Assembly: GCA_951799425.1 (NCBI GenBank)
Contig: OX637399.1
Span: forward strand, 19,504,001 to 19,568,000
Origin: Ilex aquifolium
Lineage: Eukaryota; Streptophyta; Magnoliopsida; Aquifoliales; Aquifoliaceae
Direction of reading: 5' to 3'
Length of the DNA stretch: 64,000 nucleotides
In this document: one piece after another, positions 8,125 through 60,940 of the stretch
How positions within the stretch are numbered: position 1 is the first letter of the stretch
Layout of the letters: the number at the start of each line of letters is the position of its first letter
The notes under the pieces: generated by a model
Databases searched by the model: none
What the model was told of the DNA's origin: nothing
Seen by the model: the letters and a program-made list of their open reading frames with translations, nothing else
Made by a program: the position numbers and the translations under genes

Positions 8125-11000
8125 TGTGACGCCCCAAAATCCGGGGGTCCCTTATTAACCGTTGACCACCCGTCAACCCGCGAAAATACCCGTGGATGTC
8201 ACTCAACCTAATACCACGGTAGTAGCATTCCCTTAACCGGGATCTTAACTCACAATTGTTAACCGGATTCGATTATTCATTTGGGTTCAACCAATATTCA
8301 ATATACCGTGATTTATACTCCATTATAGTCCATTTACATCATTGGAGGGAAGGAAAACGTAGATTGAAAATAGGGCGAAGCAGTGTGAAAATCTGAAAAT
8401 TTTGAAGAGAGTACCGGTACCATACCGTACCGGTACACAGTACCGGTACCCCTATGTACCGGTACCCGGTACCGGTACTGTCAACCCACTGGAAAGGGAG
8501 TACCGGTACACAGTACCGGTACCATACAGTACCGGTACCCAGTACCGGTACTCTCTGCCCAGTTTCGCCATTTTCAACCATTTTTCAATTCCAATTCATT
8601 TCAAACCACTTCAAAATCATCCAAAACTTATACAATGAAGTTTCTAACATAAAACATTGTTTGTACAAGTTCTATTACAACCCGATACATATATTTACAT
8701 GTCAATATCAAATTTCCTTAAAAGTTTTACAAAAATTCAAAACAAAGCCACATCCGACTTTCTTCGTCCTTGAAGCCCGTATGAGGGTCTTCCATCCCTG
8801 CATATCCCACACCTGAAAATGTTGTCCCACGAAGGGTGAGCCACGCTCAATAGGATATCCTCCTACAGAGGCCACTCCCCAACCTAAGTGCATATGAAAT
8901 GCGCACATGCAACAATCAACAAGCATCAACCAATCCAACAAGAGTATAGACTTCAATGTTAGAAAGCTACCATGCTATGCTATGTCATGCCATGATATGA
9001 GATGGAACTCACTCACGCACCTTATCCCGAGTCTTCCCCGACTCACACAACACAATGCAAAAGCCAATGTGTATGAACCCGTCTATTGACGGAAAAACCC
9101 TCCCAATGATCGTTTGAATTAAAAGTTATGTCTTTATAAAAACCCAATCATTGTTGGAGGCTACCCATTGAATGGGTGTTTTTATACAACAAAATCTTGT
9201 GTCTTTTTGGGCAACGGATTTTGGAGTCGCACCACTGGCTCCGTGGGCCATGCCACTTTTCTGGAATTTCACCGCCGGTCAAATGACTGAACCAAGTGGT
9301 TCCGGGTTTTTCACCCGAGGGAGTGTCTAGCCCTACTTGCTTTACCCGACACAAGTTTTCCTTATGCAATGCAACCGTGCAACTCAGTCGGATCTTCGAT
9401 CCCGACTTTCCCGAGTTCACATACCAACCACCAAGATTTGGTGTTTGATCCACAACACATGCACACACCCACACTCATGTCCATTACCCATGAATGCGAT
9501 GCCAATTCACACCCACACACACCCATGTCTTATGACCATGAATGTGATGTACCCATGAGAATGCAATGTAATGTATCATTGCACCTTATCCACATGTTCA
9601 CTATGTATGAGTGTCATATGAACAATCACAAGATAAATCCACATATCCATGGTACTTCATATCATAAGCATATAAATACCACAATTCAACACTTTGTCAA
9701 CATATATCACAAGTATGTGTACATCTACATTTCCTTACACATAACATCCAACAACAAATCCGAAAGCATGTTTTCACAATTCCCATGCAATTTAACACAC
9801 TTAAATCCATATTGGCATTTAAACAAACACTATGCAAGCATACAATTATATAATCATAATCATGCTCAATTCTCCTCACATGGATCAAGAACTCACATAA
9901 GTGACTTCCACTCGATCAATTCAAGATAAAATTTATTCTATCTATTCCTTGATGTTCATATATCATACTTTCTCAAGAAATTATCAAGAACCATTCCTAA
10001 ATGTCCATTTCATTTAGAAGTTCACTTTACCCAATTTCCCATATCAATTTTCCATACTTCAAGCTCCTTTATAAAATTTACCCAACAAGTAAATATATAC
10101 ACCCATTTCATACCAACCTTGCTTAGCACATTTGGTACCCATTTCCCACACATGAAATACATTGGTGGTACATTAAACTAGAGAATGTGATTTAAATCAT
10201 ACCACCCATTCTCAATACCCATTTCACCCAATTAACCACAATAGGCAAGTGATACATATATATATACACCTACCCATTCCATATAACCTTCCTAGGTTGG
10301 AAATAAACCTAAGTAGGAAGAAAACCCTACCTCTTGTAGCGTGTTGAATCGCCGTGGGAAGCTCCGAGAACTCAAAGCAAGCTTGAATCCTCCACTTCCA
10401 ACTTTTCGGCCTCCCAACGTTCGGTGAAAGCCGTCGTTTTTGGTATCCACGCGTAGAGCAACTCTTGTTCTTGGCCCGAGTCGATTTGAGCGCTAGAACG
10501 GAGTAGATCGTAGAGAGAAGGTGGAGTGTTTCTCTCTTTTCCCTCTCTTCTCAATCGGCTGAACAATCGGCTGAAACAATGGGGAAAAATCTAATTTTTC
10601 CCCCTATTTATATTTTAGAATACTTGGCCCACAATTGACCACACGTCCTATTTAATTTCGGGTCCGTTTTAATCCCGAAACGACTAAATTTCGCTCCGGT
10701 TCAAGTTCGAATTGTTTTTATTTCAAATTGCCTCTAATATTTCCCCAAACTTTAAAATTTTATAAAAATTTCGTGTACGGGGTCACCCGAGGCCCGTTCA
10801 TCTCGTAAAACGTGAAAAATCCGACTATCTCGGAATTCAACGAAATTTGACGTGGTAACTAGATTTCACGAGACGAATCCAACGGTGAAATCCGTTTCGT
10901 CATCCGAGATCTAGAAAAATTCAGTTTTTCAACTAGTACCGAAGTGGCAATTCACCTATTGCCCTTGTTCGTCAAAGTTTAAATTTTCTGGGGTTTCACA
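8125..11000 (-). mobile_element. Tekay-like solo LTR, 2.88 kb
   Basis: The plus strand begins TGTGACGCCCC and ends GGGGTTTCACA, the reverse complement of the LTR ends of the intact Tekay-like elements at 16465 and 42268. Matching 5-base duplications (GTATG) lie on both sides and no internal region is present, so it is a solo LTR left by recombination between two LTRs. On the minus strand a TATA-like AATATAAATAGGGG lies near 10600-10615. A palindromic array lies at 8411-8552. It is a few hundred bases longer than its relatives and more diverged, hence older. Confidence 0.93.
8411..8552. repeat. GTACCGGTAC palindromic array in LTR
   Basis: Repeated GTACCGGTAC cores are separated by short CA-rich spacers, with a CCACTGGAAAGGGAG spacer between sub-blocks. 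The same position in the LTRs at 42268, 49809 and 57362 holds the equivalent array. Chance frames across it give Gly-Thr-Gly-Thr-Arg-Tyr strings that are not proteins. Confidence 0.95.
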
Positions 11001-11005
11001 GTATG
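11001..11005. repeat. Target-site duplication GTATG, right copy
   Basis: Exact match to 8120-8124. Confidence 0.9.
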
Positions 11006-11249
11006 TATGCATGTAATAAATAAAATATCAAATTTCCATAGTTATCCATTCATAAATTGAGAATTTGATTTTATTTCTAATTACACATACACACTTTGAA
11101 CGTCCCTATTTTAAATCAATATAAATTAGATAATAAGCCATGACAGATAATATAAGCTGGTCAATTATTCATGTTGTCCACATGTTAGGATACTGTTATA
11201 TAATTAACTACCCATACAATCAAAACATGAATAAAATAGAAATCAGCAT

Positions 11250-11445
11250 AAATAAGGAAACTGTCTAAATAAAGGGTCCCAACTATTAGAAAACTACTTA
11301 AACAAAGAGTCTCAACTATTAGGAAACTGCTTAAACAAAGAGTCCCAATTATTAGGAAACTGCTTAAACAAAGAGTCTCAACTATTAAGAAACTACTTAA
11401 ATAAAGAGTCTCAACTATTAGAAAACTGCTTAAACAAAGAGTAGT
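11250..11445. repeat. 33-bp minisatellite, about 5-6 copies
   Basis: The unit CTATTAGGAAACTGCTTAAA with AAAGAGTCTCAA repeats every 33 bases with scattered substitutions (starts near 11281, 11314 and 11347). Because 33 is a multiple of three, a minus-strand frame reads through as an 11-residue repeat (LCLSSFLIVET). There is no other sign of a gene. The flanks 11006-11249 and 11446-11623 hold nothing recognised. Confidence 0.9.
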
Positions 11446-11623
11446 TCCAATGCAATAATGAGTCTGCTCACAATCTCCTTTTGATCCCAATCAAAGCCAC
11501 GTTCACTAAAACCACTGTTAATAACTTGAAAGATAAATCATAAATTCATCAAACACATGGTGCGCGTGTGTGCAACATTACAAGTGTACAAGGAAATTAA
11601 AGCAATAACAGACACATTCAATT

Positions 11624-12474
11624 TGTTGATGCAGAAACCCTTCTTAGGAAAAAACACGGGGAACCTTCTCGGTTCACCAAAGCCTAATCCACTAAACCCA
11701 AAGTCAATCTTCAAGTACTCGAGTCGTATGCCTCAACCAATCCACCTGGCTAGATGCTTCTTTCCTTCGTAGATCTCTCCACCAAATGCCCTCCTTCGAC
11801 GTTATGGTGAGCTTCACTTGAACTCCCCGTCGCACAGTTTGTTAAGGCCTCGAGCAATCTTGAAGGCTTCACACCCAAGAACTCAATATGCACACTCTCC
11901 AATTTGATTTTGGTTGACACGAAGCAAGATCTTCTTCTTCAAAGTGTGAGGTTGAATGGAAGAAACAAGATGGTTGGCCTTTGGTCTTAGGGATCTAATG
12001 TTGTTCTTGAAGCATTCTAGAAAGATTTTTGGTATATTCTTTCTCATAGAGGCTTACCCTAGGTTTAAGACATTTCCCCATATATATAGGACACTAAATA
12101 ATGTTTGTCTTGGGGACCAACCCTATTTAAATAATTATTTAAAAATAAATATTAAGTTGGTTTGGTCAAAAATCCCTAGAAAAGTAGGTCAAATCGACAT
12201 CAGATGCAAAACGGACAAAATTGGCTCCTATTAAATCGGTTCATAGTTGTATTGGTTATAGTTGTACGGGTTCATCACACCACAGAGAGACTTGTACCGG
12301 CACTATGTGCTTTGTACCGTTTCATCCCTTCATAAATCACTCATTGTACCAGTACATCCCACTCTAGTACCGGTTCTTTTCTTGTTTCACACTCTATACC
12401 TCCACTTTAACACCACCACCAACCACGGCACCCTACCAAACAACCAACCTACCATTCCTTGACCTCGCAAAAAC
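11624..12474 (-). mobile_element. LTR-like repeat, TGTTGATGCA family, copy 1
   Basis: The plus strand begins TGTTGATGCAGAAACCC. Related copies lie at 35969-38418 and about 39000-40040, and a short inverted one at 38460-38573. Transcription is probably on the minus strand, because a TATA box (CCTATATATA) lies at 12080-12089 when read that way. Upstream of it, at 12264-12375, are spaced GTACCGG-type motifs. The right end is not defined: the solo LTR at 12480 was inserted here. Confidence 0.6.
12264..12375. repeat. Degenerate GTACCGG/GTACCAGTAC motifs upstream of TATA
   Basis: Four or five related motifs (GTACCGGCAC, GTACCGTTTC, GTACCAGTAC, GTACCGGTTC) occur in about 110 bases, roughly 180-290 bases upstream of the minus-strand TATA box. 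Confidence 0.6.
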
Positions 12475-12479
12475 ACAAC
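12475..12479. repeat. Target-site duplication ACAAC, left copy
   Basis: ACAAC here is repeated exactly at 14335-14339, flanking the LTR 12480-14334. Confidence 0.85.
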
Positions 12480-14334
12480 TGATTGATTGGAAAACGCGTT
12501 GTTGTATCCTAACCTCTAAACATCATCCCTAAATGTGTGTATGGCTTATAGGAATGGGTGAGTGTCACTCTCACTCGGAATGATGCAAAAGATTAGGCAA
12601 CAACGGAATGGTGGTGGATGGAATTGTGGAATGAACAAAATATGTGGAATGAGATGCGGTGTGCACAAAAATGCTCCCCAATCGAAAGGAGTCTTTTGTG
12701 GTCATGTGTTTTACTTGGAAAATATTCCAAGGTCGTCTCCTCAGGGAAGGAAAGGGAGTTTTGTGAAAGTGATTTTGTAAAAGTGAAAAGAAAGTGTAAA
12801 ATCTTGTATTTGTGTTTTGGTGAGTTTTGTTTAAAATGAAAATGCAAGAAAGCAGGTGTTGGCTAATCCAAAGGGTTCATTCCAATGGGAATACCAAATC
12901 AACTCAAAGCCTTCCTCCGATTGAGCATGAATGAACGATTGATTCGGGGGAAGCTAGGGACGAGATTGGTGAGTATCTAAGCATAAACCGTGACTAGGCC
13001 TACGGACTATCAAAGGCTCACCAACTCATCCACTCTCAACCCCGTCAAACCGAACCATTTGACTCTAAAGGGAGGAATGAAGAAGAGTTGAAAATGGTAT
13101 TCCCAAGAGGAATTTTCCCTTGGATTAACCAACTTAAATCCTAGCTACTCATATTAAAAATGCAAGACAAGCATAATGTAGATGGATATGGAAGAGAAAT
13201 GGAGATTTAAAACATGAAACTTAACTTGAAGCAAGAAATCTAAAGCTATGAAGAGAAATATTCAAAACCCATTTTAAGCTAAAAATGAAGAACTTGAAAG
13301 CATAACAATGGTGAAATGTAAAGTGCAAGGCTAAACTTGAAATGTACTTCTAATAAATGGCATTAAAGACAGTAAAGGAAGCTTACAATATCCTTACAAG
13401 AGGTTACAAGAGAAATGGATGGAAGAACATGTAAAAATCACAACTTTACTTTTCATCTTCTTCCTCACTAAAACTACTCTAAGCTTAGGTAGCCAACCCT
13501 TTACAAATGAATGGAATGCTGAATATAATGGTGTGTGGGAGACTTCCCAAAATGTCCAAGAGGCTCCCCCCTAGCTGTGTGTACGAGCTCCCATCAAGAG
13601 AGGGCTGAATGGATGGCTTTGACAGGCTAGGAGATCATAGCCTGGGCAGCCCACTCCCCCCCATTCATCCTTTAATGCATTGGCCTTTAAAGTCTTCCAC
13701 TTGAGTGTAGGAGGCCTGTAAATGTGTAAGGAAATGTTGGGATAGGCGTGGGAGAAGTGTAGGTGGGACCCCCAAGCCTCAAAGTTGAGTTACAGGCTGT
13801 TTTCGCGACCAGAAGATCCGGAGTACCGGTACTAGGTACCGGTACCATTTGGTACCGGTACCTAGTACCGGTACTGTTTTTCTGCACTGGACCACCTTCG
13901 GTAGAATCGGCATAACTCTTGCTATAACCGTTGGATTGGGCTGAAAGTTTGACACCAAATAGAAGACACCCATATCTACAACTTTCATGTTTTTAACTTT
14001 TCCAAATTCTGAGTAGATCATGGTCAAAATGGAGGAATTCCGAGGCAGTGCTTCCAATTGTTGCTGCAGCTGGTGCCCTTGTTCCCAAGCACCAATGTCT
14101 TCTTGATTTCTTCACTTTTAAGCCTCCAATTCTTCATGTATTGTGTTCATGCCTTCACCACACATCCATCAAGGTTGCAATGTCCTAAAATCAATCATTT
14201 AAGCTATAAAAGGTTGCAACATCAAAATATCAACATTAGAGACAATTTTGGCTAACACTAAGTATTTAAATGCAAAAGTTGAGTTATAATGCATGTAATG
14301 AGCCCTTCAAATATGCAATATTATGCGCTCATCA
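12480..14334 (-). mobile_element. Solo LTR, TGATGAGCGCATAAT family, 1.86 kb
   Basis: On the minus strand it starts TGATGAGCGCATAATATTGC and ends CCAATCAATCA, so TG...CA termini are present, with an exact ACAAC duplication outside. A related LTR lies at 26820-28222 with the same start and a shared GGTCGTCTCCTCA block. No internal region follows. It carries a 54-base near-perfect palindrome at 13822-13875. The small open frames inside are not conserved between the two copies. Confidence 0.85.
13822..13875. repeat. 54-base near-perfect palindrome of GTACCGGTAC units
   Basis: Two 26-base arms that are exact reverse complements are separated by two bases (TT). Each arm contains GTACCGGTAC-type cores joined by TAG. 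Single strands would fold into a hairpin. Confidence 0.95.
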
Positions 14335-14339
14335 ACAAC
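14335..14339. repeat. Target-site duplication ACAAC, right copy
   Basis: Exact match to 12475-12479. Confidence 0.85.
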
Positions 14340-14975: not shown

Positions 14976-15001
14976 TATATGTCAAGCATTCAATACATCT
15001 G

Positions 15002-16464: not shown

Positions 16465-18925
16465 TGTAAAACCTGAGAAAATTTAAACTTTTGAGAAAAA
16501 AGGGCAAAATGGTAAATTGCCACTATGGTACAGGTTGTAAACCTGAAATTTTCTAGAGCTCGGATGACGAAACGGACATCACCGTTGGATTCGTCTCGCG
16601 AAATCTAGTTAGCCTGTTAAATTTCATTGAATTCCGAGTTAATCGGATTTTTCGCGTTTTACGAGGCGGTCGGACCTCGGGAGACCCAAAAACGAAATTC
16701 TGAATAAAATTTTAAATTTTGGGAAATAAATGACGGCAAGTTAAAATAAAAATATTTTGAACTTGAACCGAAGCGAAATTTAATCGTTTCGGGGTTAAAA
16801 CGGACCCGGGAAATAAGGGCCGTGTGGCGCGTTGTAGGCCAAGTATTTAAAGAGTATTTAAAGGGGAGAAAATCAGATTTTCTCCCCATTTTGTTCAGCC
16901 GATCAACGTGAGAGAGGAAGAGAGGGAAAGGGCTTGGGTTCTCCATCTTCTCTCTACGATCTACGGAGATTGAGAGCTCAAATCCACTCGGGCCAAGAAC
17001 AAAAGTTGTTCTCCTCGCTGAGGGCTACAAAACCATACCAAGGAGGTCGAGTTTTGGAGTGATTCGAAGAACGGGAATTTGGGAGAGTGAAGACTCCACC
17101 TCGTTTGGAGTTCTCGGAGCTTCTCAAAGTTGTTCTCTACGCTTCAAGAGGTAGGGTTCCCTCCTACTAAGGTTTATTCCAAACCTAGGATGTTTTTATG
17201 AAATGGGTAGGATGATAGATTGTATATCTCTTGCCTATTGTTGGTAATGTGTTGAAATGGGTATTGAAATGGGTAAAGATCAATTATAATTGGATTGGTA
17301 ATTAGAAATTTTTAAATGAAATTTCTAGAATTGGGTATATGGGATTGACCTAATGTAATTCTTGGATTATGTGAATTGTGGGCATGCTATGTGCTTATAT
17401 TATGCCATGAGAATTAAAGTGTGTTATTACTTGATTTTGTGATGACATGCTTGGGTGTCATTCAAGATAAAATGTTGATATATGTATACATGTTATAATA
17501 TATTGACATTGTAGAGAATTATGGAAATTATATGCTTACGATGTAATTTTGCCATGAAATATGTAAAACGTGATTAGAATGTTCATGTGTTACTCATAGC
17601 ATATTGAACATGATAATATTGTTGCAATGGAGCATCACATTGCATATGCACGGGAACATCGCATTTAGTGGGTGTGTGTGCATGGTGGTTGTCTTCACCA
17701 CGCTTGGTGGATGACGAGTGGGCTCGGGTAAGATGGGTCGATGACCTAATCGAGTCGCACGGTTTGCACGGTTGTTAGGGTTGGGGTAGCAAGAAGGGCT
17801 AGACTATCCCTCGGGTGAGAGACCCGGTGATTGGATACGCACTCCGTTGGTATAAGAGTCCATAAAGTGTGTCGGTGTACGCGGAACCGTTGGTGGAAGT
17901 CCATGAATTCCGTGTCGGTTGGGTGCCGTTGGTGTAAGTCCATAAATATCCACCCCAAGAAAGACCCTAGAATGAAATGTCATTTGATGTACAACATAAA
18001 TGACGGATTAGTACACATTGGCACTTGCATGTGTAGAGGAGTCGGGAAGGGCTCGGTTGATATGCATGAGTGGGTCTCACCTCATTCCATAGCATGGCAT
18101 TGCAAATTCCATCATTGAATATATTTCCTTGCTTGGGATGTTATGAATTGTTGTTTTGTGGCATGTGAACATTTCATATGCATATAGGTTGGGGAGTAGC
18201 CTCATTAGGAGATACCCTATTGAGCGTGGCTCACCCTTTGTGGGAAAAATATTTCAGGTGCTGGGTTCACACCGGCGGACGGCTCCCATTTCGAGCTCCA
18301 AGGTTGAAGAAAGCCGGAATGTGGCTTTATTTTGAGTTTTTGTAAAATTATTATAAAAACTTGGTTTTGGTATGTAAATTCATATAAATGTTTGTAATAG
18401 AATTTATATGTATCATGTTTTATGGGAAAAACTTCATTAAATATGTGTTGGATGGAAAAAGATGTGTGTTGAATGGATTGGAAGTGAAAAACAGAGGAAA
18501 AAGGCAAAAAGTGGCAGAACTGTACCGGTACGCGTACCGGTACGGCGACAGCCAGAAGGTAGAGCGTACCGGTACGCGTACCGGTACGCAGAGGTCTAGT
18601 GGGCATACCGTACCGGTACGCGTACCGGTACGCCCTCCAAAATTTTCTGAAATTTTAATTTTTTTTCTTTTCTTGCCAAACCCTTGGGCTATGTCTTCCT
18701 CCCTTCTAATGTTACAAATGGACTATAATGGAGTATAAATCATGGTACATTGAATATTGGTTGAACCCAATGAATAATCGAATCCGGTTAACAATTGTGA
18801 GTTAAGATCCCGGTTAAGGGGATACTACTACCGTGGTGTTAGGTTGAGTGACATCCACGGGTATTTCCGCAGGTTGACGGGTGGTCAACGGTTAATAAAG
18901 GACCCCCGGAAATTGGGGCGTCACA
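16465..18925 (+). repeat. 5' LTR of the Tekay-like element
   Basis: It begins TGTAAAACC and ends GCGTCACA. TATA-like TATTTAAA occurs twice near 16844-16863, about 380 bases in, so the long remainder is probably transcribed leader. The palindromic array lies near the 3' end, at 18522-18632. Confidence 0.93.
18522..18632. repeat. GTACCGGTACGCGTACCGG array in 5' LTR
   Basis: Three paired blocks of GTACCGGTACGC are joined by unrelated spacers. The corresponding array of the 3' LTR (about 26023-26089) lacks one block. The core differs from the GTACCGGTACTG form in the tandem element at 42 kb, although the LTRs are otherwise homologous. Confidence 0.93.
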
Positions 18926-18928
18926 GCT

Positions 18929-23870: not shown

Positions 23871-23951
23871 TCATTTAGTGATATATGACTGTTGCATATG
23901 CATGTGGTTGTATGTGCATGATTGTGTGAATTTCGGGGACGAAATTCTTTT

Positions 23952-23964: not shown

Positions 23965-26382
23965 TGTAAAACCCGAGAAAATTTAAACTTTGGAGAAAAA
24001 AAGGGCAAAATGGTAAATTGCCACTATGGTACAGGTTGTAAACCTGAAATTTTCTAGAGCTCGGATGACGAAACGGACATCACCGTTGGATTCGTCTCGC
24101 GAAATCTAGTTAGCCTGTTAAATTTCATTGAATTCCGAGTTAATCGGATTTTTCGCGTTTTACGAGGCGGTCGGACCTCGGGAGACCCAAAAACGAAATT
24201 CTGAATAAAATTTTAAATTTTGGGAAATAAATGACGGCAAGTTAAAATAAAAATATTTTGAACTTGAACCGGAGCGAAATTTAATCGTTTCGGGGTTAAA
24301 ACGGACCCGGGAAATAAGGGCCGTGTGGCGCGTTGTAGGCCAAGTATTTAAAGAGTATTTAAAGGGGAGAAAATCAGATTTTCTCCCCATTTTGTTCAGC
24401 CGATCAACGTGAGAGAGGAAGAGAGGGAAAGGGCTTGGGTTCTCCATCTTCTCTCTACGATCTACGGAGATTGAGAGCTCAAATCCACTCGGGCCAAGAA
24501 CAAAAGTTGTTCTCCTCGCCGAGGGCTACAAAACCATACCAAGGAGGTCGAGTTTTGGAGTGATTCGAAGAACGGGAATTTGGGAGAGTGAAGACTCCAC
24601 CTCGTTTGGAGTTCTCGGAGCTTCTCAAAGTTGTTCTCTACGCTTCAAGAGGTAGGGTTCCCTCCTACTAAGGTTTATTCCAAACCTAGGATGTTTTTAT
24701 GAAATGGGTAGGATGATAGATTGTATATCTCTTGCCTATTGTTGGTAATGTGTTGAAATGGGTATTGAAATGGGTAAAGATCAATTATAATTGGATTGGT
24801 AATTAGAAATTTTTAAATGAAATTTCTAGAATTGGGTATATGGGATTGACCTAATGTAATTCTTGGATTATGTGAATTGTGGGCATGCTATGTGCTTATA
24901 TTATGCCATGAGAATTAAAGTGTGTTATTACTTGATTTTGTGATGACATGCTTGGGTGTCATTCAAGATAAAATGTTGATATATGTATACATGTTATAAT
25001 ATATTGACATTGTAGAGAATTATGGAAATTATATGCTTACGATGTAATTTTGCCATGAAATATGTAAAACGTGATTAGAATGTTCATGTGTTACTCATAG
25101 CATATTGAACATGATAATATTGTTGCAATGGAGCATCACATTGCATATGCACGGGAACATCGCATTTAGTGGGTGTGTGTGCATGGTGGTTGTCTTCACC
25201 ACGCTTGGTGGATGACGAGTGGGCTCGGGTAAGATGGGTCGATGACCTAATCGAGTCGCACGGTTTGCATGGTTGTTAGGGTTGGGGTAGCAAGAAGGGC
25301 TAGACTATCCCTCGGGTGAGAGACCCGGTGATTGGATACGCACTCCGTTGGTATAAGAGTCCATAAAGTGTGTCGGTGTACGCGGAACCGTTGGTGGAAG
25401 TCCATGAATTCCGTGTCGGTTGGGTGCCGTTGGTGTAAGTCCATAAATATCCACCCCAAGAAAGACCCTAGAATGAAATGTCATTTGATGTACAACATAA
25501 ATGACGGATTAGTACACATTGGCACTTGCATGTGTAGAGGAGCCGGGAAGGGCTCGGTTGATATGCATGAGTGGGTCTCACCTCATTCCATAGCATGGCG
25601 TTGCAAATTCCATCATTGAATATATTTCCTTGCTTGGGATGTTATGAATTGTTGTTTTGTGGCATGTGAACATTTCATATGCATATAGGTTGGGGAGTAG
25701 CCTCATTAGGAAATATCCTATTGAGCGTGACTCACCCTTTGTGGGAAAAATATTTCAGGTGCTGGGTTCACACCGGCGGACGGCTCCCATTTCGAGCCCC
25801 AAGGTTGAAGAAAGCCGGAATGTGGCTTTATTTTGAGTTTTTGTAAAATTATTATAAAAACTTGGTTTTGGTATGTAAATTCATATAAATGTTTGTAATA
25901 GAATTTATATGTATCATGTTTTATGGGAAAAACTTCATTAAATATGTGTTGGATGAAAAAAGATGTGTGTTGAATGGATTGGAAGTGAAAAACAGAGGAA
26001 AAAGGCAAAAAGTGGCAGAACCGTACCGGTACGCGTACCGGTACGCAGAGGTCTAGTGGGCATACCGTACCGGTACGCGTACCGATACGCCCTCCAAAAT
26101 TTTCTGAAATTTTAATTTTTTTTCTTTTCTTGCCAAACCCTTGGGCTATGTCTTCCTCCCTTCTAATGTTATAAATGGACTATAATGGAGTATAAATCAT
26201 GGTACATTGAATATTGGTTGAACCCAATGAATAATCGAATCCGGTTAACAATTGTGAGTTAAGATCCCGGTTAAAGGGATACTACTACCGTGGTGTTAGG
26301 TTGAGTGACATCCACGGGTATTTCCGCAGGTTGACGGGTGGTCAACGGTTAATAAAGGACCCCCGGAAATTGGGGCGTCACA
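23965..26382 (+). repeat. 3' LTR of the Tekay-like element
   Basis: It begins TGTAAAACCC and ends GCGTCACA. It is near-identical to 16465-18925, with the array one block shorter. Almost all the base differences between the two LTRs are transitions. Confidence 0.93.
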
Positions 26383-42267: not shown

Positions 42268-44771
42268 TGTAAAACCCGAGAAAATTTAAACTTTTTAGAA
42301 AAAGGGGCAAAACGGTAAATTGCCAGTACGGTACAAGTTGTAAAACTGAATTTTTCTAGAACTCGGATGACGAAACGAACTTCACCGTTGGATTCGTCTC
42401 GCGAAAACTAGTTACCCTGTCAAATTTCATTAAATTCCGAGTTAGTCGGATTTTTCGCGTTTTACGAGGTGGTCGAGCCTCGGGAGACCCAAAAACGAAA
42501 TTCTGATTTAAAATTTAAATTTTGGGAAATAAATGACGGCAAGTTAAAATAAAAATATTTTGAACTTGAACCGGAGCGAAATTTAATCGTTTCGGGGTTA
42601 AAACAGACCCGGGAAATAAGGGTCGTGTGGCGCGTTGTAGGCCAAGTATTTAAAGAGTATTTAAAGGGGAGAAAATCAGATTTTCTCCCCATTTTGTTCA
42701 GCCGATCAGCGTGAGAAAGAAGAGAGGGAAAGGGCTTGGGTTCTCCATCTTCTCTCTACGATCTACGGAGATTGAGAGCTCAAATCCACTCGGGCCAAGA
42801 ACAAAAGTTGTTCTCCTCGCCGAGGGCTACAAAACCATACCAAGGAGGTCGAGTTTTGGAGTGATTCGAAGAACGGGAAATTGGGAGAGTGAAGACTCCA
42901 CCTCGTTTGGAGTTCTCGGAGCTTCTCAAAGTTGTTCTCTACGCTTCAAGAGGTAGGGTTCCCTCCTACCAAGGTTTATTCCACACCTAGAATGCTTAGG
43001 TGAAATGGGTAAATGAATAGATATAGATATATATATGTATGTCATTTGCCTATGGTTGTGAAATTGGGTGAAATGGGTTGAAATCAATTCTAATTGGATT
43101 GGTAATTAGAAGTTTCTAAATGAAATTTCTAGGATTGAGTATATGAAATTAACCCAATGTGACTCTTGGGCTATATGAAGTGTGGGCATGCTATGTGTTT
43201 ATCTTGTGCTTGAAATTGAAGTATGTTATCTCTTGATAATGTGATGACATGCTTGGGTGTTGATTAAGATTAAATGTTGATATATATACATGCTTGTGAT
43301 ATATTGACATTGTAAGGAAATATGGAAATTATATGCTTATGATATGATTTTGCCATGAAGTGTGAGAAATGTATTGTAAATGTTCATATGTCACTCATAC
43401 CATATTGAACATTGTAATATTATTGAAATGGGACATCACATTTCATATGCACGGGAGCATTGCACTTAGTGGGTGTGTGTGCATGGTGGTTGTCTTCACC
43501 ACGCTTGGTGGATGACGAGTGGGCTCGGGTAAGATGGGTTGATGACCAAATCGAGTCGCACGGTTTACACGGTTGTTAGGGTTGGGGTAGCAAGAAGGGC
43601 TAGACTATCCCTCGGGTGAGAGACCCGGTGATTAGATACGCACTCCGTTGGTATAAGAGTCCATAAAGTGTGTCGGTGTACGCGGAACCGTTGGTGGAAG
43701 TCCATGAATTCCGTGTCGGTTGGGTGCCGTTGGTGTAAGTCCATAAATATCCACCCCAAGAAAGACCCTAGAATGAAATGTCATTTGATGTACAACATAA
43801 ATGACGGATTAGTACACATTGGCACTTGCATGTGTAGAGGAGCCGGGGGGGGCTCGGATGATATGCATGAATGGGTCTCATCTCATTCCATAGCATGGCA
43901 TTGCAAATTCCATCATTGAATATAATTCCTTGCTTGGAATGTTATAAATTGTTGTTTTGGGCATGTGAACATTTCATATGTATATAGGTTGGGGAGTAGC
44001 CTCATTAGGAGATACCCTATTGAGCGTGGCTCACCCTTTGTGGAAAAAACATTTCAGGTGTTGGGTTTGCACCGGTGGATGGCTCATTTGGGGAGCATCA
44101 AGCATGAAGGGGGCCGACATGTGGCCTTAATTTTGAGTTGTAAAGTTTTTACCAAAATTTCCATTTTTGATGTATAAATTATGGGAATTGTTGTAATGGA
44201 ATTTTTATAAAGCATGTTATATGGAAAATCCTATTACTCTGGTATTGGATGAGTTGGGGAAGGTTTGGAATGGATTGGAAATGAAAAATGGAGGAAAAAG
44301 GCAAAACTGGGCAGAGAGTACCGGTACTGGGTACCGGTACTGTATGGTATCGGTACTGTGTACCGGTACCCCCTTTCCAGTGGGTTGACAGTACCGATAC
44401 CGGGTACCGGTACTGAATGGTACCGGTACTGTGTACCGGTACCACTTTCCAGTGGGTTGACAGTACCGGTACTGGGTACCGGTACTCTCTTCAAAATTTT
44501 CAGATTTTCACACTGCTTCGCCCTATTTTCAATCTACGTTTTCCTTCCCTCCAATGATGTAAATGGACTATAATCGAGTATAAATCATGGTATATTGAAT
44601 ATTGGTTGAACTCAAATGAATAATCGAATCCGGTTAACAATTGTGAATTAAGATCCCGGTTATGGGGATGTTACTACCGTGGTGTTAGGTTGAGTGACAT
44701 CCACGGGTATTTCCGCGGGTTGATGGGTGGTCAACGGTTAATAAGGGACCCCCGGAAATTGGGGTGTCACA
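42268..44771 (+). repeat. LTR 1 of the tandem element
   Basis: It begins TGTAAAACCC and ends GGTGTCACA. TATTTAAA pairs lie near 42646-42667. It has an 8-base G run near 43845 and its array at 44318-44486. Confidence 0.95.
44318..44486. repeat. GTACCGGTACTG array, LTR 1
   Basis: GTACCGGTACTG cores are grouped into ~75-80-base higher-order units separated by CTTTCCAGTGGGTTGACA. It is the same sequence as in LTR 2. Confidence 0.95.
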
Positions 44772-44774
44772 GCT

Positions 44775-44786
44775 TGGTATCAGAGC
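44775..44786 (+). other. Primer-binding site, initiator tRNA-Met (unit 1)
   Basis: TGGTATCAGAGC, three bases after LTR 1. Confidence 0.95.
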
Positions 44787-45128
44787 ATAGGTATGCGATT
44801 TACCTAGGGCTTGATGGGGCATGGGTCTAGACCATTGCATTCATTGTACATTACATGTTATTTGCTTAAATTGCTACATGTTATGTGATATGTGATATGT
44901 GTATTATATGCATGGTAAAATGTGTATGGAAATGGACACACCAGGGTTAGAGAACTTAACCTTGGGAGTGGGAAAGCAAATGAACGGGAAAGTTCAAAAG
45001 CGTAAGGGTCCACTATTGGAGACATACGCTCTACTAGTGAGACAATGAGAAAGATTTGAACGTTTTAACTTTGATCCCTATCTAGGGATATTAAGTCGTT
45101 GTACCTTTGCCATTTGACGTGTGTGTAG

Positions 45129-49712: not shown

Positions 49713-49795
49713 TCATTTAGTGATATATATGACTGTTGCATATGCATGTGGTTGTATGTGCATGATTGTGTGAATTTCGGGGACGAAATTCTTTT

Positions 49796-49808
49796 AAGGG
49801 GGGAAGAA
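49796..49808 (+). other. Polypurine tract (unit 1)
   Basis: AAGGGGGGAAGAA lies directly before LTR 2. Confidence 0.93.
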
Positions 49809-51386: not shown

Positions 51387-51405
51387 GGGGGGGGGGGGGG
51401 GGGGG
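51387..51405 (+). repeat. Poly-G run, 19 bases
   Basis: The same place holds 8 Gs in LTR 1 (near 43845) and in LTR 3 (near 58940), and GGGAAGGG in the 16465 element. Confidence 0.9.
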
Positions 51406-51870
51406 CTCGGATGATATGCATGAATGGGTCTCATCTCATTCCATAGCATGGCATTGCAAATTCCATCATTGAATATAATTCCTTGCTTGGAATGTTATAA
51501 ATTGTTGTTTTGGGCATGTGAACATTTCATATGCATATAGGTTGGGGAGTAGCCTCATTAGGAGATACCCTATTGAGCGTGGCTCACCCTTTGTGGGAAA
51601 AACATTTCAGGTGTTGGGTTTGCACCGGTGGATGGCTCATTTGGGGAGCATCAAGCATGAAGGGGGCCGACATGTGGCCTTAATTTTGAGTTGTAAAGTT
51701 TTTACCAAAATTTCCATTTTTGATGTATAAATTATGGGAATTGTTGTAATGGAATTTTTATAAAGCATGTTATATGGAAAATCCTATTACTCTGGTATTG
51801 GATGAGTTGGGGAAGGTTTGGAATGGATTGGAAATGAAAAATGGAGGAAAAAGGCAAAACTGGGCAGAGA

Positions 51871-52039
51871 GTACCGGTACTGGGTACCGGTACTGTATGG
51901 TATCGGTACTGTGTACCGGTACCCCCTTTCCAGTGGGTTGACAGTACCGATACCGGGTACCGGTACTGAATGGTACCGGTACTGTGTACCGGTACCACTT
52001 TCCAGTGGGTTGACAGTACCGGTACTGGGTACCGGTACT
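51871..52039. repeat. GTACCGGTACTG array, LTR 2
   Basis: Same length and sequence as the array of LTR 1. Confidence 0.95.
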
Positions 52040-52327
52040 CTCTTCAAAATTTTCAGATTTTCACACTGCTTCGCCCTATTTTCAATCTACGTTTTCCTTC
52101 CCTCCAATGATGTAAATGGACTATAATCGAGTATAAATCATGGTATATTGAATATTGGTTGAACTCAAATGAATAATCGAATCCGGTTAACAATTGTAAA
52201 TTAAGATCCCGGTTATGGGGATGTTACTACCGTGGTGTTAGGTTGAGTGACATCCACGGGTATTTCCGCGGGTTGATGGGTGGTCAACGGTTAATAAGGG
52301 ACCCCCGGAAATTGGGGTGTCACAGCT

Positions 52328-52339
52328 TGGTATCAGAGC
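52328..52339 (+). other. Primer-binding site, initiator tRNA-Met (unit 2)
   Basis: TGGTATCAGAGC, three bases after LTR 2. Confidence 0.95.
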
Positions 52340-52681
52340 ATAGGTATGCGATTTACCTAGGGCTTGATGGGGCATGGGTCTAGACCATTGCATTCATTGT
52401 ACATTACATGTTATTTGCTTAAATTGCTACATGTTATGTGATATGTGATATGTGTATTATATGCATGGTAAAATGTGTATGGAAATGGACACACCAGGGT
52501 TAGAGAACTTAACCTTGGGAGTGGGAAAGCAAATGAACGGGAAAGTTCAAAAGCGTAAGGGTCCACTATTGGAGACATACGCTCTACTAGTGAGACAATG
52601 AGAAAGATTTGAACGTTTTAACTTTGATCCCTATCTAGGGATATTAAGTCGTTGTACCTTTGCCATTTGACGTGTGTGTAG

Positions 52682-55600: not shown

Positions 55601-57265
55601 AGGTGGATGGAGTACCTAGAAGACTATGACTTCACATTGCATTACCACCCTGGTAAGGCAAATGTGGTGGCTAATGCGCTTAGCCGGAAGTCACGCGGTG
55701 TCTTAGCTAGTGTAGCTTCCCGGGAGTGGCGGATGCTTGAGACCGTGGGCCAATTTGGGCTGCATTATCGGGGTCGGACTCAGGGTGTTTTAGGAAGCTT
55801 GGTGGCTACGCCTTCCCTACTGAGCAGAGTGATTGAGTCCCAGAGACAGGACTCAGAGTTATCATCCATCAGGGACCGAGTGCAGGCGGGTACTGGTGAC
55901 GAGGGCTGGGTCATTCACTCGGATGACAGTCTTCGGTTTAGGGGAAGGGTTGTGGTTCCCCAGTCGACGGAGCTGAGAGAGGAGATCCTCAGGGAGTTCC
56001 ATTGCTCTCGTTTTGCAGTGCATCCAGGCGGCACGAAGATGTATCATGATCTTCGTCGCCAGTATTATTGGAGCGGGATGAAAAGGCAGATTGGCGATTT
56101 TGTCAGTAGATGCCTCACATGTCAGCAGATTAAGGCCGAACACCAAAGGCCAGCTGGTATGCTCCAGCCCTTGGAAGTGGCTGAGTGGAAGTGGGAGCAC
56201 GTCACAATGGACTTTGTGACCCACTTGCCACGGACATCGCGGGGACATGATGCGGTGTGGGTGATAGTGGACCGGCTTACGAAGTCGGCACACTTTTTGG
56301 CGGTGCGGATGACCTTCACTCTGGAGGAATTCTGCAGGTTGTACATAAGGGAGATAGTCCGGTTGCATGGGGTACCCGTATCTATAGTATCAGATCGGGA
56401 TCCCAGGTTTACAGCTCACTTTTGGGAGAGTTTCCAACGAGCCATGGGGACTCAGTTGAGGATGAGCACAGTCTTCCACCCCCAAACGGACGGTCAGTCG
56501 GAACGGACCATCCAGACATTAGAGGACATGCTACGGGCATGCGTCCTAGACCTCAAGGGTAGCTGGGAAGAACATTTACCCTTAGTGGAATTTGCCTATA
56601 ACAACAGTTATCAGGCTAGCATACGGATGGCACCCTATGAGGCACTTTATGGGAGGCCTTGTCGTTCTCCGGTTTGTTGGACTGAGGTTGGAGAAAGACC
56701 CTCTACGGGTCCAGAATTGATAAGAGACGCCTCGGAGAAGGTGGATCTGATAAGGAAGCGTCTTCTCACAGCTCAAAGCCGGCAGAAGAGCTACGCCGAT
56801 AGGCGGCGGCGGCCTCTGGAATTTGAGGTGGGGGATCATGTCTTCTTGAAAGTGATGCCTAAGAGAGGAGTGGTCAGATTCGGCAAGCGGGGAAAACTGT
56901 CGCCGAGGTATATTGGGCCCTTCGAGATACTTGAGAGAGTTGGCACTTTGGCCTACAGATTGGCGTTACCGCCAACTTTATCGGGCGTTCACGCTGTATT
57001 CCATGTCTCCATGCTCCGGAAGTATACTCCAGATCCGACGCATGTTGTGGATTGGGGCGAGCTTGTTGTTGATACGGATGGAACCTTCGAGGAAGGACCA
57101 GTGCGTGTCATGGATAGTCGGGATCAGGTTTTGCGAGGCAAGACCGTGAGGCTTGTGAAGGTGTTGTGGCAGCACCGAGGAGTGGAAGAGGCAACATGGG
57201 AGCGTGAGGACACCATACGTGCCAATTATCCTTTCTTATTTGAGGATGGAGGTACATTCTTATAG
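52682..57265 (+). pseudogene. Tekay-like gag-pol region, unit 2 (broken)
   Basis: It is the same length as unit 1 and differs at only about a dozen positions seen by eye. The domains are the same and in the same order: Gag with CCHC knuckle near 53540, PR near 53925, RT motif FVDD near 54911, RNase H, integrase, GPY/F, and a chromodomain-like tail ending at 57265. It is broken about four times, so it has decayed a little further than unit 1. Confidence 0.94.
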
Positions 57266-57348
57266 TCATTTAGTGATATATATGACTGTTGCATATGCAT
57301 GTGGTTGTATGTGCATGATTGTGTGAATTTCGGGGACGAAATTCTTTT

Positions 57349-57361
57349 AAGGGGGGAAGAA
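57349..57361 (+). other. Polypurine tract (unit 2)
   Basis: AAGGGGGGAAGAA lies directly before LTR 3. Confidence 0.93.
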
Positions 57362-59896
57362 TGTAAAACCCGAGAAAATTTAAACTTTTGAGAAAAATGG
57401 GCAAAACGGTAAATTGCCACTACGGTACAAGTAGTAAAACTGAATTTTTCTAGAACTCGGATGACGAAACGAACTTCACCGTTGGATTCGTCTCGCGAAA
57501 ACTAGTTACCCTGTCAAATTTCATTAAATTCCGAGTTAGTCGGATTTTTCGCGTTTTACGAGGCGGTCGAGCCTCGGGAGACCCAAAAACGAAATTCTGA
57601 TTTAAAATTTTAAATTTTGGGAAATAAATGACGGCAAGTTAAAATAAAAATATTTTGAACTTGAACCGGAGCGAAATTTAATCGTTTCGGGGTTAAAACA
57701 GACCCGGGAAATAAGGGCCGTGTGGCGCGTTGTAGGCCAAGTATTTAAAGAGTATTTAAAGGGGAGAAAATCAGATTTTCTCCCCATTTTGTTCAGCCGA
57801 TCAGCGTGAGAAAGAAGAGAGGGAAAGGGCTTGGGTTCTCCATCTTCTCTCTACGATCTACGGAGATTGAGAGCTCAAATCCACTCGGGCCAAGAACAAA
57901 AGTTGTTCTCCTCGCCGAGGGCTACAAAACCATACCAAGGAGGTCGAGTTTTGGAGTGATTCGAAGAACGGGAAATTGGGAGAGTGAAGACTCCACCTCG
58001 TTTGGAGTTCTCGGAGCTTCTCAAAGTTGTTCTCTACGCTTCAAGAGGTAGGGTTCCCTCCTACCAAGGTTTATTCCACGCCTAGAATGCTTAGGTGAAA
58101 TGGGTAAATGAATAGATATAGATATATATATGTATGTCATTTGCCTATGGTTGTGAAATTGGGTGAAATGGGTTGAAATCAATTCTAATTGGATTGGTAA
58201 TTAGAAGTTTCTAAATGAAATTTCTAGGATTGAGTATATGAAATTAACCCAATGTGACTCTTGGGCTATATGAAGTGTGGGCATGCTATGTGTTTATCTT
58301 GTGCTTGAAATTGAAGTATGTTATCTCTTGATAATGTGATGACATGCTTGGGTGTTGATTAAGATTAAATGTTGATATATATACATGCTTGTGATATATT
58401 GACATTGTAAGGAAATATGGAAATTATATGCTTATGATATGATTTTGCCATGAAGTGTGAGAAATGTATTGTAAATGTTCATATGTCACTCATACCATAT
58501 TGAACATTGTAATATTATTGAAATGGGACATCACATTTCATATGCACGGGAGCATTGCACTTAGTGGGTGTGTGTGCATGGTGGTTGTCTTCACCACGCT
58601 TGGTGGATGACGAGTGGGCTCGGGTAAGATGGGTTGATGACCTAATCGAGTCGCACGGTTTGCACGGTTGTTAGGGTTGGGGTAGCAAGAAGGGCTAGAC
58701 TATCCCTCGGGTGAGAGACCCGGTGATTGGATACGCACTCCGTTGGTATAAGAGTCCATAAAGTGTGTCGGTGTACGCGGAACCGTTGGTGGAAGTCCAT
58801 GAATTCCGTGTCGGTTGGGTGCCGTTGGTGTAAGTCCATAAATATCCACCCCAAGAAAGACCCTAGAATGAAATGTCATTTGATGTACAACATAAATGAC
58901 GGATTAGTACACATTGGCACTTGCATGTGTAGAGGAGCCGGGGGGGGCTCGGATGATATGCATGAATGGGTCTCATCTCATTCCATAGCATGGCATTGCA
59001 AATTCCATCATTGAATATAATTCCTTGCTTGGAATGTTATAAATTGTTGTTTTGGGCATGTGAACATTTCATATGCATATAGGTTGGGGAGTAGCCTCAT
59101 TAGGAGATACCCTATTGAGCGTGGCTCACCCTTTGTGGGAAAAACATTTCAGGTGTTGGGTTTGCACCGGTGGATGGCTCATTTGGGGAGCATCAAGCAT
59201 GAAGGGGGCCGACTTGTGGCCTTAATTTTGAGTTGTAAAGTTTTTACCAAAATTTCCATTTTTGATGTATAAATTATGGGAATTGTTGTAATGGAATTTT
59301 TATAAAGCATGTTATATGGAAAATCCTATTACTCTGGTATTGGATGAGTTGGGGAAGGTTTGGAATGGATTGGAAATGAAAAATGGAGGAAAAAGGCAAA
59401 ACTGGGCAGAGAGTACCGATAGTGGGTACCGGTACTGTATGGTACCGGTACTGTGTACCGGTACCCCCTTTCCAGTGGGTTGACAGTACCGGTACCGGGT
59501 ACCGGTACTGAATGGTACCGGTACTGTGTACCGGTACCCCCTTTCCAGTGGGTTGACAGTACCGGTACTGGGTACCGGTACTGAATGGTACCGGTACTGG
59601 GTACCGGTACTCTCTTCAAAATTTTCAGATTTTCACACTGCTTCGCCCTATTTTCAATCTACGTTTTCCTTCCCTCCAATGATGTAAATGGACTATAATC
59701 GAGTATAAATCGTGGTATATTGAATATTGGTTGAACCCAAATGAATAATCGAATCCGGTTAACAATTGTGAATTAAGATCCCGGTTATGGGGATGTTACT
59801 ACCGTGGTGTTAGGTTGAGTGACATCCACGGGTATTTCCGCGGGTTGACGGGTGGTCAACGGTTAATAAGGGACCCCTAGAAATTGGGGTGTCACA
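57362..59896 (+). repeat. LTR 3 of the tandem element
   Basis: It begins TGTAAAACCC and ends GGTGTCACA. It is 31 bases longer than LTR 1, of which 30 come from extra array sequence. The outer GTGAG follows. Confidence 0.95.
59413..59611. repeat. GTACCGGTACTG array, LTR 3 (30 bases longer)
   Basis: It has one more core pair than LTRs 1 and 2, plus several base differences. Confidence 0.95.
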
Positions 59897-59901
59897 GTGA
59901 G
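59897..59901. repeat. Target-site duplication GTGAG, right copy
   Basis: Exact match to 42263-42267. Confidence 0.93.
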
Positions 59902-60279
59902 GCTATCCAAGACATCGGTGGGTGTATCCGGTGGAGAGGTTTATTAAAGAAAATGAGCCTCTTGTTGACCCGATGTGCTTAGTTAAGCAAAATTTTTATG
60001 ATCATAAATATCCTAATATGAACTAATGTGTGCATTAGTGTGTGGATGAAGTGTAGGTGATCACCCAAAGAAGAAAAAGGAAATCCAAAAAGGTGTCCTG
60101 TATATCAGACAACTCAGCCAGAAGGCACATCCGGTATGACGCATGCAAAGGAATCAAGGAAAGAGATTAGTCACATCTGGAAGGTTTCCAGTATATTGAT
60201 TGAGGTATTTGAAAGACTATACCGATATTCTAGACATCTTATCTGATATTCCAGAATCATGACAATGAAGGACAAGACG
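59902..60279. other. Unassigned flank of the tandem element
   Basis: No coding similarity. Short words such as ATCCGGTG, ATCCGGTATG and ATACCGATATTC recur loosely here and again after 62759, so the two flanks of the solo LTR appear to be one sequence. Confidence 0.4.
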
Positions 60280-60284
60280 GAAGG
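60280..60284. repeat. Target-site duplication GAAGG, left copy
   Basis: GAAGG is repeated exactly at 62754-62758. Confidence 0.9.
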
Positions 60285-60779
60285 TGTAACACCCCGTATT
60301 TTCTTTTATATATGTATATAGATATATAGTAGATAATTGAGGTAAAAATGTGGATATGTGTAAAAATAGTAGGAATAAATACTAGGGAGACAAATGGATT
60401 GGGAAGTTTGAGTTTCGAAAGTGTGTAAACTTGAGAAGAGGGATTATGGAAGTTTCTAAATATTTTTAGGTCCAAATAAGGTGTCCATTGAATCCGGAAG
60501 GTCGAACAACCTTGGGAGAGGTAATATGAGGTGTATTGGAAGCTAGGAAGTATTCCGGAGTGAAAACACACTTAGAGAAAATTTGGGTAAAAAGGAGTTG
60601 GGACACCTTCTAGTATTTTTTTCATAACTTTTTATTCTTACGTCCAATTGATCTGAAATTTGGACAGTAGATAGTAGACATCTAGGGCTACAAAAGTGTG
60701 TCTCATGAAAATTTTCCAATTCGACCTCTAAATGGGTCAAAAATGCACTTGAAGTTGAAGTAGAAAATCTGGGCAGTGA

Positions 60780-60940
60780 CTACCGGTAGTCAACCGGTAG
60801 TCGATGGTCCAGTGTGCCCGAGCTACCGGTAGTCAACAGGTAGTCGAGTGTCCAGTGTACCCGAGCTACCGGTAGTCAACAGGTAGTCGAGTGCCAGTGT
60901 ACCCGAGCTACCGGTAGTCAAAATCAGCTACCGGTAGTCG
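60780..60940. repeat. CTACCGGTAGTC array upstream of TATA
   Basis: A ~44-base unit (GAGCTACCGGTAGTCAACAG, then GTAGTCGAGTGTCCAGTGTA) occurs about three times, with extra CTACCGGTAGTC cores at each end. It stops about 50 bases before the TATA box. Confidence 0.93.

What the first reader, a model, noticed from the sequence alone, without database searches (positions are those of the whole stretch)
8411..60940. ACCGGT-centred palindromic arrays shared by unrelated LTR families
GTACCGGTAC or CTACCGGTAG arrays occur in Tekay-like LTRs (8411, 18522, 26023, 44318, 51871, 59413), in the TGATGAG-family LTR (13822), loosely in the TGTTGATGCA family (12264), and in the TGTAACACC-family LTR (60780). The LTRs are otherwise unrelated. 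Either one sequence-specific host factor is being exploited by many families, or the motif spreads by a mechanism of its own such as conversion or template switching. I know of no named system that fits.
Basis: partly seen in the sequence, partly recalled or inferred. Interest (0 to 1): 0.8.

Follow-up and report, generated by a model that had tools for sequence, protein, structure and literature searches.

The report
Shared palindrome switches in retrotransposon promoters
In a holly genome, unrelated families of jumping genes carry the same clusters of short palindromic DNA sites just in front of their start signals, apparently swap these clusters like cassettes, and almost never mix versions within one cluster, which suggests they depend on one switch protein or a small set of them.

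Summary
The window fits Ilex aquifolium chromosome 9. GTACCGGTAC occurs 51,910 times (reversed control 907), CTACCGGTAG 22,728 (353). Of 36 multi-copy arrays read (motif-chosen), 34 lie in LTRs or internal regions of Tekay, of "D" (a deleted relative of Tekay with non-homologous LTRs), or of Athila, a truly distant lineage.

Arrays sit just upstream of the LTR promoter; in Athila a second array precedes a PF20167 3' ORF. A second site, TCCAGTR, lies 7 or 8 nt from a half-site in 62 of 79 sampled cases. Arrays are homotypic: 7 mixed neighbours genome-wide against 32,847 G-to-G. At one homologous place in D LTRs three palindrome types alternate. One D pair keeps 92-93% identity on both sides of a swapped cassette. 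One D subfamily carries an Athila-like array.

Best reading: exchangeable promoter modules binding a dimeric, CCGG-recognising factor family. Closest known: Sirevirus RM boxes and VANDAL/VANC motifs. No binding, expression or methylation data were available.

The parts
8411..8551 (-). G-type array, 9 exact GTACCGGTAC, in a Tekay solo LTR (8125-11000, TSD GTATG on the + strand)
8311..8317 (-). TATAAAT core promoter candidate about 94 nt 3' of the array
12294..12376 (.). decayed array: four GTACC-like units, one with ACCGGT intact; family unresolved
13823..13874 (-). G-type array, 4 exact copies, in an Athila-type LTR (about 12500-14335, minus strand; ends approximate)
18522..18631 (+). G-type array, 6 exact copies, 5' LTR (16465-18925) of Tekay element T1 (TSD TAAAT)
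18734..18740 (+). TATAAAT 102 nt 3' of the T1 5' LTR array
26023..26088 (+). G-type array, 3 exact and 1 decayed copy, 3' LTR (23965-26382) of T1; shorter than in its 5' LTR
44318..44485 (+). G-type array, 8 exact copies, LTR a (42268-44771) of Tekay compound T2 (outer TSD GTGAG)
44579..44585 (+). TATAAAT 93 nt 3' of the array in LTR a of T2
51871..52038 (+). G-type array, 8 exact copies, LTR b (49809-52324) of T2
59413..59610 (+). G-type array, 11 exact copies from 59426 (first unit decayed), LTR c (57362-59896) of T2
60780..60937 (+). C-type array, 5 exact CTACCGGTAG with interleaved CCAGTG sites, units of about 43 nt, in D-family solo LTR (60285-62753, TSD GAAGG)
60991..60998 (+). TATAAATA 53 nt 3' of the D array

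Best explanation
The arrays are promoter-proximal (U3) arrays of binding sites. Each palindrome is a two-fold symmetric site with a CCGG centre for a homodimeric, sequence-specific DNA-binding factor; TCCAGTR is a second, phased contact. Together they form a composite enhancer upstream of the LTR TATA box and, in Athila, of the promoter of the 3' ORF. Different palindromes (GTACCGGTAC, CTACCGGTAG, CTTCCGGAAG, GCGTCCGGACGC) match different members or specificities of the factor family. Families acquire, swap and homogenise whole array cassettes by recombination, so unrelated LTR lineages in one genome share the same few codes. Shown by sequence: enrichment, position, grammar, homotypy, type switching, one cassette swap, and an Athila-like array in D. 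Inferred: that a protein binds, that it activates transcription or counters silencing, and what the factor is.
For: Enrichment of four CCGG-centred palindromes: 51,910 / 22,728 / 23,874 / 8,992 exact copies against 907 / 353 / 931 / 134 for reversed patterns (the last two types were read in only 2 D arrays and 1 Athila array). Outer bases change together: asymmetric sites are 938 of 75,576 where 32,154 are expected if the sides were independent. Homotypy: 0 of 36 multi-copy arrays mix G and C types; genome-wide 7 mixed neighbours within 30 nt against 32,847 G-to-G. Grammar: palindrome followed by CCAGTR within 30 nt occurs 24,925 times against 143; in the first 100 places 21 are decayed palindromes, and in 62 of the other 79 CCAG lies 7 or 8 nt from a GGTAS half-site. 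Position: TATAAATA downstream in 18 of 27 D LTRs; TATAAAT 81-102 nt 3' of the array in the five + strand Tekay LTRs of the window; TATAAATAG after the array of L101. Turnover: of 27 D LTRs with one upstream flank, 14 G, 10 C, 2 CTTCCGGAAG and 1 with no intact unit; starred branches force at least 2 changes for G and 2 for C. Swap: L018 (C) vs L084 (G) 92.1% upstream, 48.7% array plus proximal, 93.3% from TATA on. Cross-family: L075 (D) vs L012 (Athila) scores 60.5, and 11 of 719 cross-lineage pairs exceed the null maximum of 42.
Against: No binding, expression, methylation or small-RNA data were available. Homotypy within an array can also come from tandem duplication of one founder unit. 9 of 27 D LTRs have no TATAAATA at the expected place. 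The grammar was measured on the first 100 places of chromosome 1, with near-copies (45 distinct spacers), and at least 5 of the 11 cases with gaps of 27-30 nt are plain D flank sequence. Array type is partly clustered on the D tree (C: 5 changes, as low in 4 of 500 shuffles; G: 7 changes, as low in 51 of 500), and 10 of 24 inner branches are unresolved. Two of three further PF20167 upstream regions (L100, L102) had no array. CpG retention is seen in D and Athila but not in Tekay compound T2.
Confidence: 0.62

Rival explanations
1. The palindromes act as nucleic-acid structure (hairpins, cruciforms, RNA dimerisation, or siRNA-generating foldbacks), as argued for maize Sirevirus palindromes.
For: Perfect self-complementarity with both outer bases changing together. 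The inverted repeat with 26-nt arms at 13822-13875. Published excess of small RNAs over Sirevirus palindromes (PMC10760457, passages).
Against: Structure alone does not fix the CCGG centre, yet all 26 D arrays read with intact units keep it while the flanking bases switch. Homotypy between neighbouring units and a preferred gap to CCAGTR are not needed for folding. Sites with A or T on at least one side of TACCGGTA are only 10,762 of 86,338.
Confidence: 0.15
2. Neutral minisatellites: arrays expand by slippage or unequal exchange and are carried along with no function.
For: Array length changes fast: 6 exact copies in the 5' LTR and 3 plus one decayed in the 3' LTR of T1, with 13 mismatches in 2,037 aligned positions upstream. 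Tandem duplication alone produces homotypy.
Against: The same palindromes, spacing preference and promoter position recur in Athila, Tekay and D. CpG observed/expected is 0.96 and 1.06 in the D and Athila arrays of the window against 0.38 and 0.32 in the rest of those LTRs. Neutral repeats would not be expected at two separate promoters of Athila.
Confidence: 0.13
3. One ancestral LTR with an array was inherited by all families, and the flanks have diverged beyond recognition.
For: D is related to Tekay in coding (53% over 178 aa), and Tekay sublineages share LTR flanks at roughly 66-80% around different arrays.
Against: Tekay and Athila are deep lineages with clearly different gag-pol. Array similarity between D and Athila (74 of 83 positions) far exceeds flank similarity, which BLAST did not detect. 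Both types occur within Tekay, D and Athila, and types interleave on the D tree.
Confidence: 0.07

Closest known systems
Sirevirus repeated motif (RM) boxes (Bousios et al. 2010, PMC2829016; abstract, section 9 and passages seen)
   Same: Multi-copy palindromes in the LTR, a short distance upstream of a TATA box; CpG-rich; extra copies upstream of the ORF at the env position; motif differs between related elements.
   Different: There: Ty1/copia Sireviruses, CGG-CCG signature, reported absent from classic elements; sharing between unrelated families of one genome is not described in the parts I saw. Here: Ty3/gypsy Tekay and Athila, CCGG-centred, a second phased TCCAGTR site, cassette swap, type switching and sharing between lineages.
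VANDAL / VANC anti-silencing systems (Hosaka et al. 2017 PMC5735166; Sasaki et al. 2023 PMC10398659; passages seen)
   Same: Short motifs in tandem arrays in non-coding TE regions, with discrete type variants that evolve together; an unrelated TE (AT9TSD1) also carries the VANC6 motif.
   Different: VANDALs are DNA transposons with a proven TE-encoded binding protein. Here the elements are LTR retrotransposons and the factor is unknown.
Tnt1 / Retrolyc1 U3 variants (PMC1838419, passages seen)
   Same: Closely related elements differ mainly in the U3 regulatory region.
   Different: One Ty1/copia superfamily; no common code shared with unrelated families in the passages seen.
ONSEN and other COPIA heat-response elements (PMC5059998, passages seen)
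   Same: Repeated acquisition of factor-binding site clusters in LTRs of several families.
   Different: Known host factor (HSFA2); HREs gained by duplication and mutation within families; no array exchange in the passages seen.

Membership tests
Sirevirus RM boxes | palindromic unit repeated many times within the LTR | tested here: met
   2-11 TACCGGTA palindromes per array in 36 multi-copy arrays: 31 in LTRs, 3 in the Athila internal region, 2 unassigned
Sirevirus RM boxes | CGG-CCG signature in that order | tested here: not met
   units are CCGG-centred: TACCGGTA, CTTCCGGAAG, GCGTCCGGACGC
Sirevirus RM boxes | lies shortly upstream of a TATA box | tested here: met
   TATAAATA in 18 of 27 D LTRs; TATAAAT 81-102 nt 3' of the array in five window Tekay LTRs
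Sirevirus RM boxes | additional copies upstream of the ORF at the env position | tested here: met
   Athila L012 and L027: arrays 208 and 294 nt before the likely ATG of a PF20167 frame; L101 another type; no array in L100 and L102
Sirevirus RM boxes | host element is a Sirevirus (Ty1/copia) | tested here: not met
   RT precedes integrase in both pol frames tested, the Ty3/gypsy order
VANDAL/VANC anti-silencing | short motif in tandem arrays in non-coding regions, with type variants among related TEs | tested here: met
VANDAL/VANC anti-silencing | TE-encoded protein binds the motif and removes methylation | not testable with these tools
   a PF20167 frame sits behind same-type arrays in Athila; no binding or methylation data
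VANDAL/VANC anti-silencing | carrier is a VANDAL (Mutator-like) DNA transposon | tested here: not met
   carriers identified are LTR retrotransposons
heat-response-element capture (ONSEN type) | site bound by a known host stress factor | not tested
   no motif library or expression data at hand; CTTCCGGAAG resembles nTTCnnGAAn by eye only

The most novel reading that the evidence does not exclude
A retrotransposon-wide 'address code' with a TE-encoded reader. The Athila 3' ORF (PF20167; basic N-terminus, acidic C-tail) makes a VANC-like DNA-binding trans-activator or anti-silencer. It recognises its own CCGG palindrome arrays in the LTR and in its own internal promoter. Tekay and D families, in which I found no such ORF in the copies examined, exploit it by acquiring the arrays.
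Probability: 0.2. Interest if true: 0.92.

Novelty: new variant of a known kind. Interest (0 to 1): 0.72.

Why it matters
If right, transcription of major Ty3/gypsy families of a plant genome depends on a few shared, discrete DNA codes that move between lineages as cassettes. That makes testable how LTR families capture, share and escape regulatory control, and gives a concrete candidate function for the long-orphan Athila 3' ORF. It also joins two literatures that seem to have stood apart: Sirevirus palindromes and VANC target arrays.

Tried and rejected
Chance: rejected by counts against shuffles and reversed patterns. Wider homology of all LTRs as the reason for sharing: not seen by BLAST for Athila vs Tekay or for D vs Tekay flanks; single-linkage first joined D to Tekay, but only because the two window arrays are physical neighbours. 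Solved-structure relatives of the PF20167 protein: none meaningful (best E 0.26). The 42 arrays and single sites come from motif-chosen places: of 36 multi-copy arrays L062 and L068 have no assigned family; of 6 single sites L055 has flank matches to the Athila LTR group and L017 and L063 group with L062; L016, L053, L054 matched nothing. Literature: searches listed no paper that I recognised, from titles and starts of abstracts, as describing this motif; most listed papers were unrelated. The 2016 paper on maize Sirevirus palindromes was not held and is known to me only through PMC10760457.
Full report
What and where. The genome handle has 103 contigs and 800.23 Mb, with 20 long contigs. The published English holly assembly drIleAqui2.1 has 104 scaffolds, 800.0 Mb and 20 chromosomes; the 18 lengths I could see agree to rounding except chromosome 2 (59.41 printed, 59.40 here) (PMC11109700, passages). 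The window is therefore Ilex aquifolium chromosome 9, 19,504,001-19,568,000, in this or a near-identical version. In the window GTACCGGTAC occurs 49 times and CTACCGGTAG 5 times, with 57 YACCGGTR against 1.83 expected from shuffles. In the genome GTACCGGTAC occurs 51,910 times against 907 for the reversed pattern, CTACCGGTAG 22,728 against 353, and pairs of GTACCGGTAC within 30 nt 32,847 against 1.

Which elements carry them. I read 42 arrays or single sites: 8 in the window and 34 on chromosome 1, chosen by motif and therefore not a random sample. With the array masked, flank BLAST places 34 of the 36 multi-copy arrays in four contexts: Tekay LTRs (15, six of them in the window), D LTRs (7), Athila LTRs (9) and an Athila internal site (3). 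L062 and L068 remain unassigned. Each lineage holds both types: among Tekay LTRs L056, L057 and L070 are C-type and the other 12 G-type. The only BLAST link between D and Tekay flanks was the physical adjacency of two window arrays. The lineage names are mine, from hallmarks I recall; Pfam shows gag, RT, RNase H and integrase in the Ty3/gypsy order for both pol frames tested. The internal part of one D copy (L099) keeps gag-like zinc knuckles (read by eye) and an integrase end 53% identical over 178 aa to the window's Tekay pol (E 1.6e-55), so D is a deleted, non-autonomous relative of Tekay.

Position. The five + strand Tekay LTRs of the window have TATAAAT 81-102 nt 3' of the array, the minus-strand one about 94 nt, and D has TATAAATA 53 nt 3' of it. 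18 of 27 D LTRs have TATAAATA within 520 nt of the anchor word; the other 9 do not. In two Athila elements the LTR arrays bracket the element and a third array lies between pol and the 3' LTR. That internal array is 208 nt (L012) and 294 nt (L027) before the likely ATG of an open frame that matches PF20167 (E 1.5e-22 and 9.8e-20). The L012 frame gives 396 aa with a basic N-terminus and an acidic C-tail; the L027 frame gives 395 aa but runs off the end of the locus. The two are 52% identical. L059 has the same layout, but the candidate ATG 372 nt downstream opens only 32 aa. PF20167 3' ORFs in Athila, with predicted nuclear signals and unknown function, are reported in sunflower (PMC11728184, passages). 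Upstream of a further PF20167 match (L101) six CGTCCGGACG palindromes stand before a TATAAATAG. In two other PF20167 upstream regions (L100, L102) no array was found.

Grammar. Searching palindrome-N(2-30)-CCAGTR gives 24,925 matches on both strands against 143 for the reversed pattern. Of the first 100 listed places (all chromosome 1, near-copies included), 21 are decayed palindromes. In 62 of the other 79 the CCAG lies 7 or 8 nt after a GGTAS half-site. Palindrome-to-CCAG gaps fall at 0 (8 cases, a 3-nt spacer type), 7-8 (40), 18-20 (18), 24 (2) and 27-30 (11); over 45 distinct spacers the same groups hold 1, 24, 9, 2 and 9. At least 5 of the 11 cases at 27-30 are plain D flank sequence, so the firm peaks are those at 7-8 and 18-20. 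They are about one helical turn apart, which points to assembly on one face of the DNA (inference). In the 43-nt units of C-type D and C-type Athila arrays, which share no flank homology, a GGTAG half-site and the CCAG stand at the same offsets (read).

A code that hardly mixes. Of 75,576 sites with G or C on both sides of TACCGGTA, only 938 are asymmetric where 32,154 are expected if the two sides were independent. No multi-copy array of 36 mixes G and C types, and genome-wide there are 7 mixed neighbours within 30 nt, in either order, against 32,847 G-to-G. Two more CCGG palindromes are strongly enriched: CTTCCGGAAG 23,874 vs 931 and CGTCCGGACG 8,992 vs 134; I read only two arrays of the first and one of the second, so most of their carriers are unknown. 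In three Athila elements read directly the LTR and internal arrays are of the same type (L011/12/15; L022/27/30; L059). In six more places the same 35-nt string recurs about 2 kb away, which fits such a pair; there I infer the family from spacing alone, apart from C20, where L098 is an Athila LTR.

Type switching and exchange. The 21-nt word that marks the D flank occurs 2,684 times. Of 27 D LTRs read, 14 carry G-type, 10 C-type and 2 CTTCCGGAAG arrays, and 1 has no intact unit, all in the same place. On a tree of about 450 nt of upstream flank the labels need 7 changes. Well-supported branches alone force 2 each for G and C and 1 for the third type. The labels are still partly clustered (C as low in 4 of 500 shuffles, G in 51 of 500), and 10 of 24 inner branches are unresolved. 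L018 (C) and L084 (G) are 92.1% identical upstream of the array and 93.3% from the TATA box on, but 48.7% in the array and proximal stretch between: a cassette swap (nine chosen pairs were compared and this is the cleanest). The array of L075, flanked on both sides by D sequence, aligns over 83 nt with an Athila internal array at 74 identities (counted on the printed alignment). Its score of 60.5 compares with a maximum of 42 in six shuffles of 719 pairs, and 11 of the 719 real pairs exceed 42: this one, eight D-Tekay and two Athila-Tekay. The 35-nt core has 98 copies: the five copies with TGCGACTCCAGAA that I read (L075, L093-L096) are all D, while the TTCGACTCCAGAA copies read (L012, L015, L098) are Athila, as is L097 with TGCGATTCCAGTA. 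Relative to transcription the array is inverted between the two families, which fits DNA-level recombination through palindromes better than copy choice on RNA (inference).

How it works. I conclude, with about 0.6 confidence, that these are exchangeable promoter modules: homodimer sites plus a phased second contact, read by a small family of CCGG-recognising factors. CpG in the window's D and Athila arrays is kept (0.96 and 1.06 observed/expected) while the rest of those LTRs is depleted (0.38 and 0.32). Tekay T1 arrays are at about 1.6 against about 0.9, but T2 arrays are no different from their LTRs (0.83-0.86 against 0.85-0.86).

What is known. Sirevirus RM boxes are the nearest kind in anatomy: palindromes upstream of a TATA box with extra boxes before ENV (PMC2829016, abstract, section 9 and passages). 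VANC target repeats are the nearest in logic: short tandem motifs with type variants, one of them carried by an unrelated TE (PMC5735166, passages; PMC10398659, passages). Tnt1-family U3 variants and ONSEN heat elements are precedents for fast promoter turnover (PMC1838419, PMC5059998, passages). The holly arrays differ from the Sirevirus boxes in host lineage, in palindrome signature, in the second site and in exchange between lineages, so I file them as a new variant of a known kind and as a member of neither named family.

Noticed in passing
window 42268-59896: Tekay LTR-internal-LTR-internal-LTR compound with matching outer TSD GTGAG, consistent with unequal recombination.
   Followed up: partly
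window 18522-18631 and 26023-26088: The two LTRs of one young Tekay element differ in array size (6 vs 3 plus one decayed palindrome) with 13 mismatches over about 2 kb upstream: the array changed length since insertion.
   Followed up: partly
G000:C1:28180266-28262099: Seventeen D-family anchor words at a regular step of about 5,094-5,124 bases on one strand: a large tandem array of LTR-internal units.
   Followed up: no
G000:C1:60595-191878: Repeated CTTCCGGAAG arrays near the chromosome end, some 7.64 kb apart, close to the 7.5-kb distance of the window's Tekay LTR arrays; possibly a Tekay subfamily with the third palindrome type.
   Followed up: no
G000:C1:19970569 and others: At least 13 PF20167 frames with the same E-value (1.8e-29) and a 377-aa open frame, which suggests a recent burst of one element group (150 of 6,661 candidates were scored).
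   Followed up: no
window 61674-62181 and 11219-11475: Tandem repeats of about 102 nt (5 copies) inside the D LTR and of 33 nt outside the arrays.
   Followed up: no
L017, L062, L063, L068: Older-looking C-type sites, in L062 and L063 within near-palindromes such as TTCTACCGGTAGAA and with variants having CTAG, CCAG or CTGG centres nearby; not assigned to a known LTR family.
   Followed up: no
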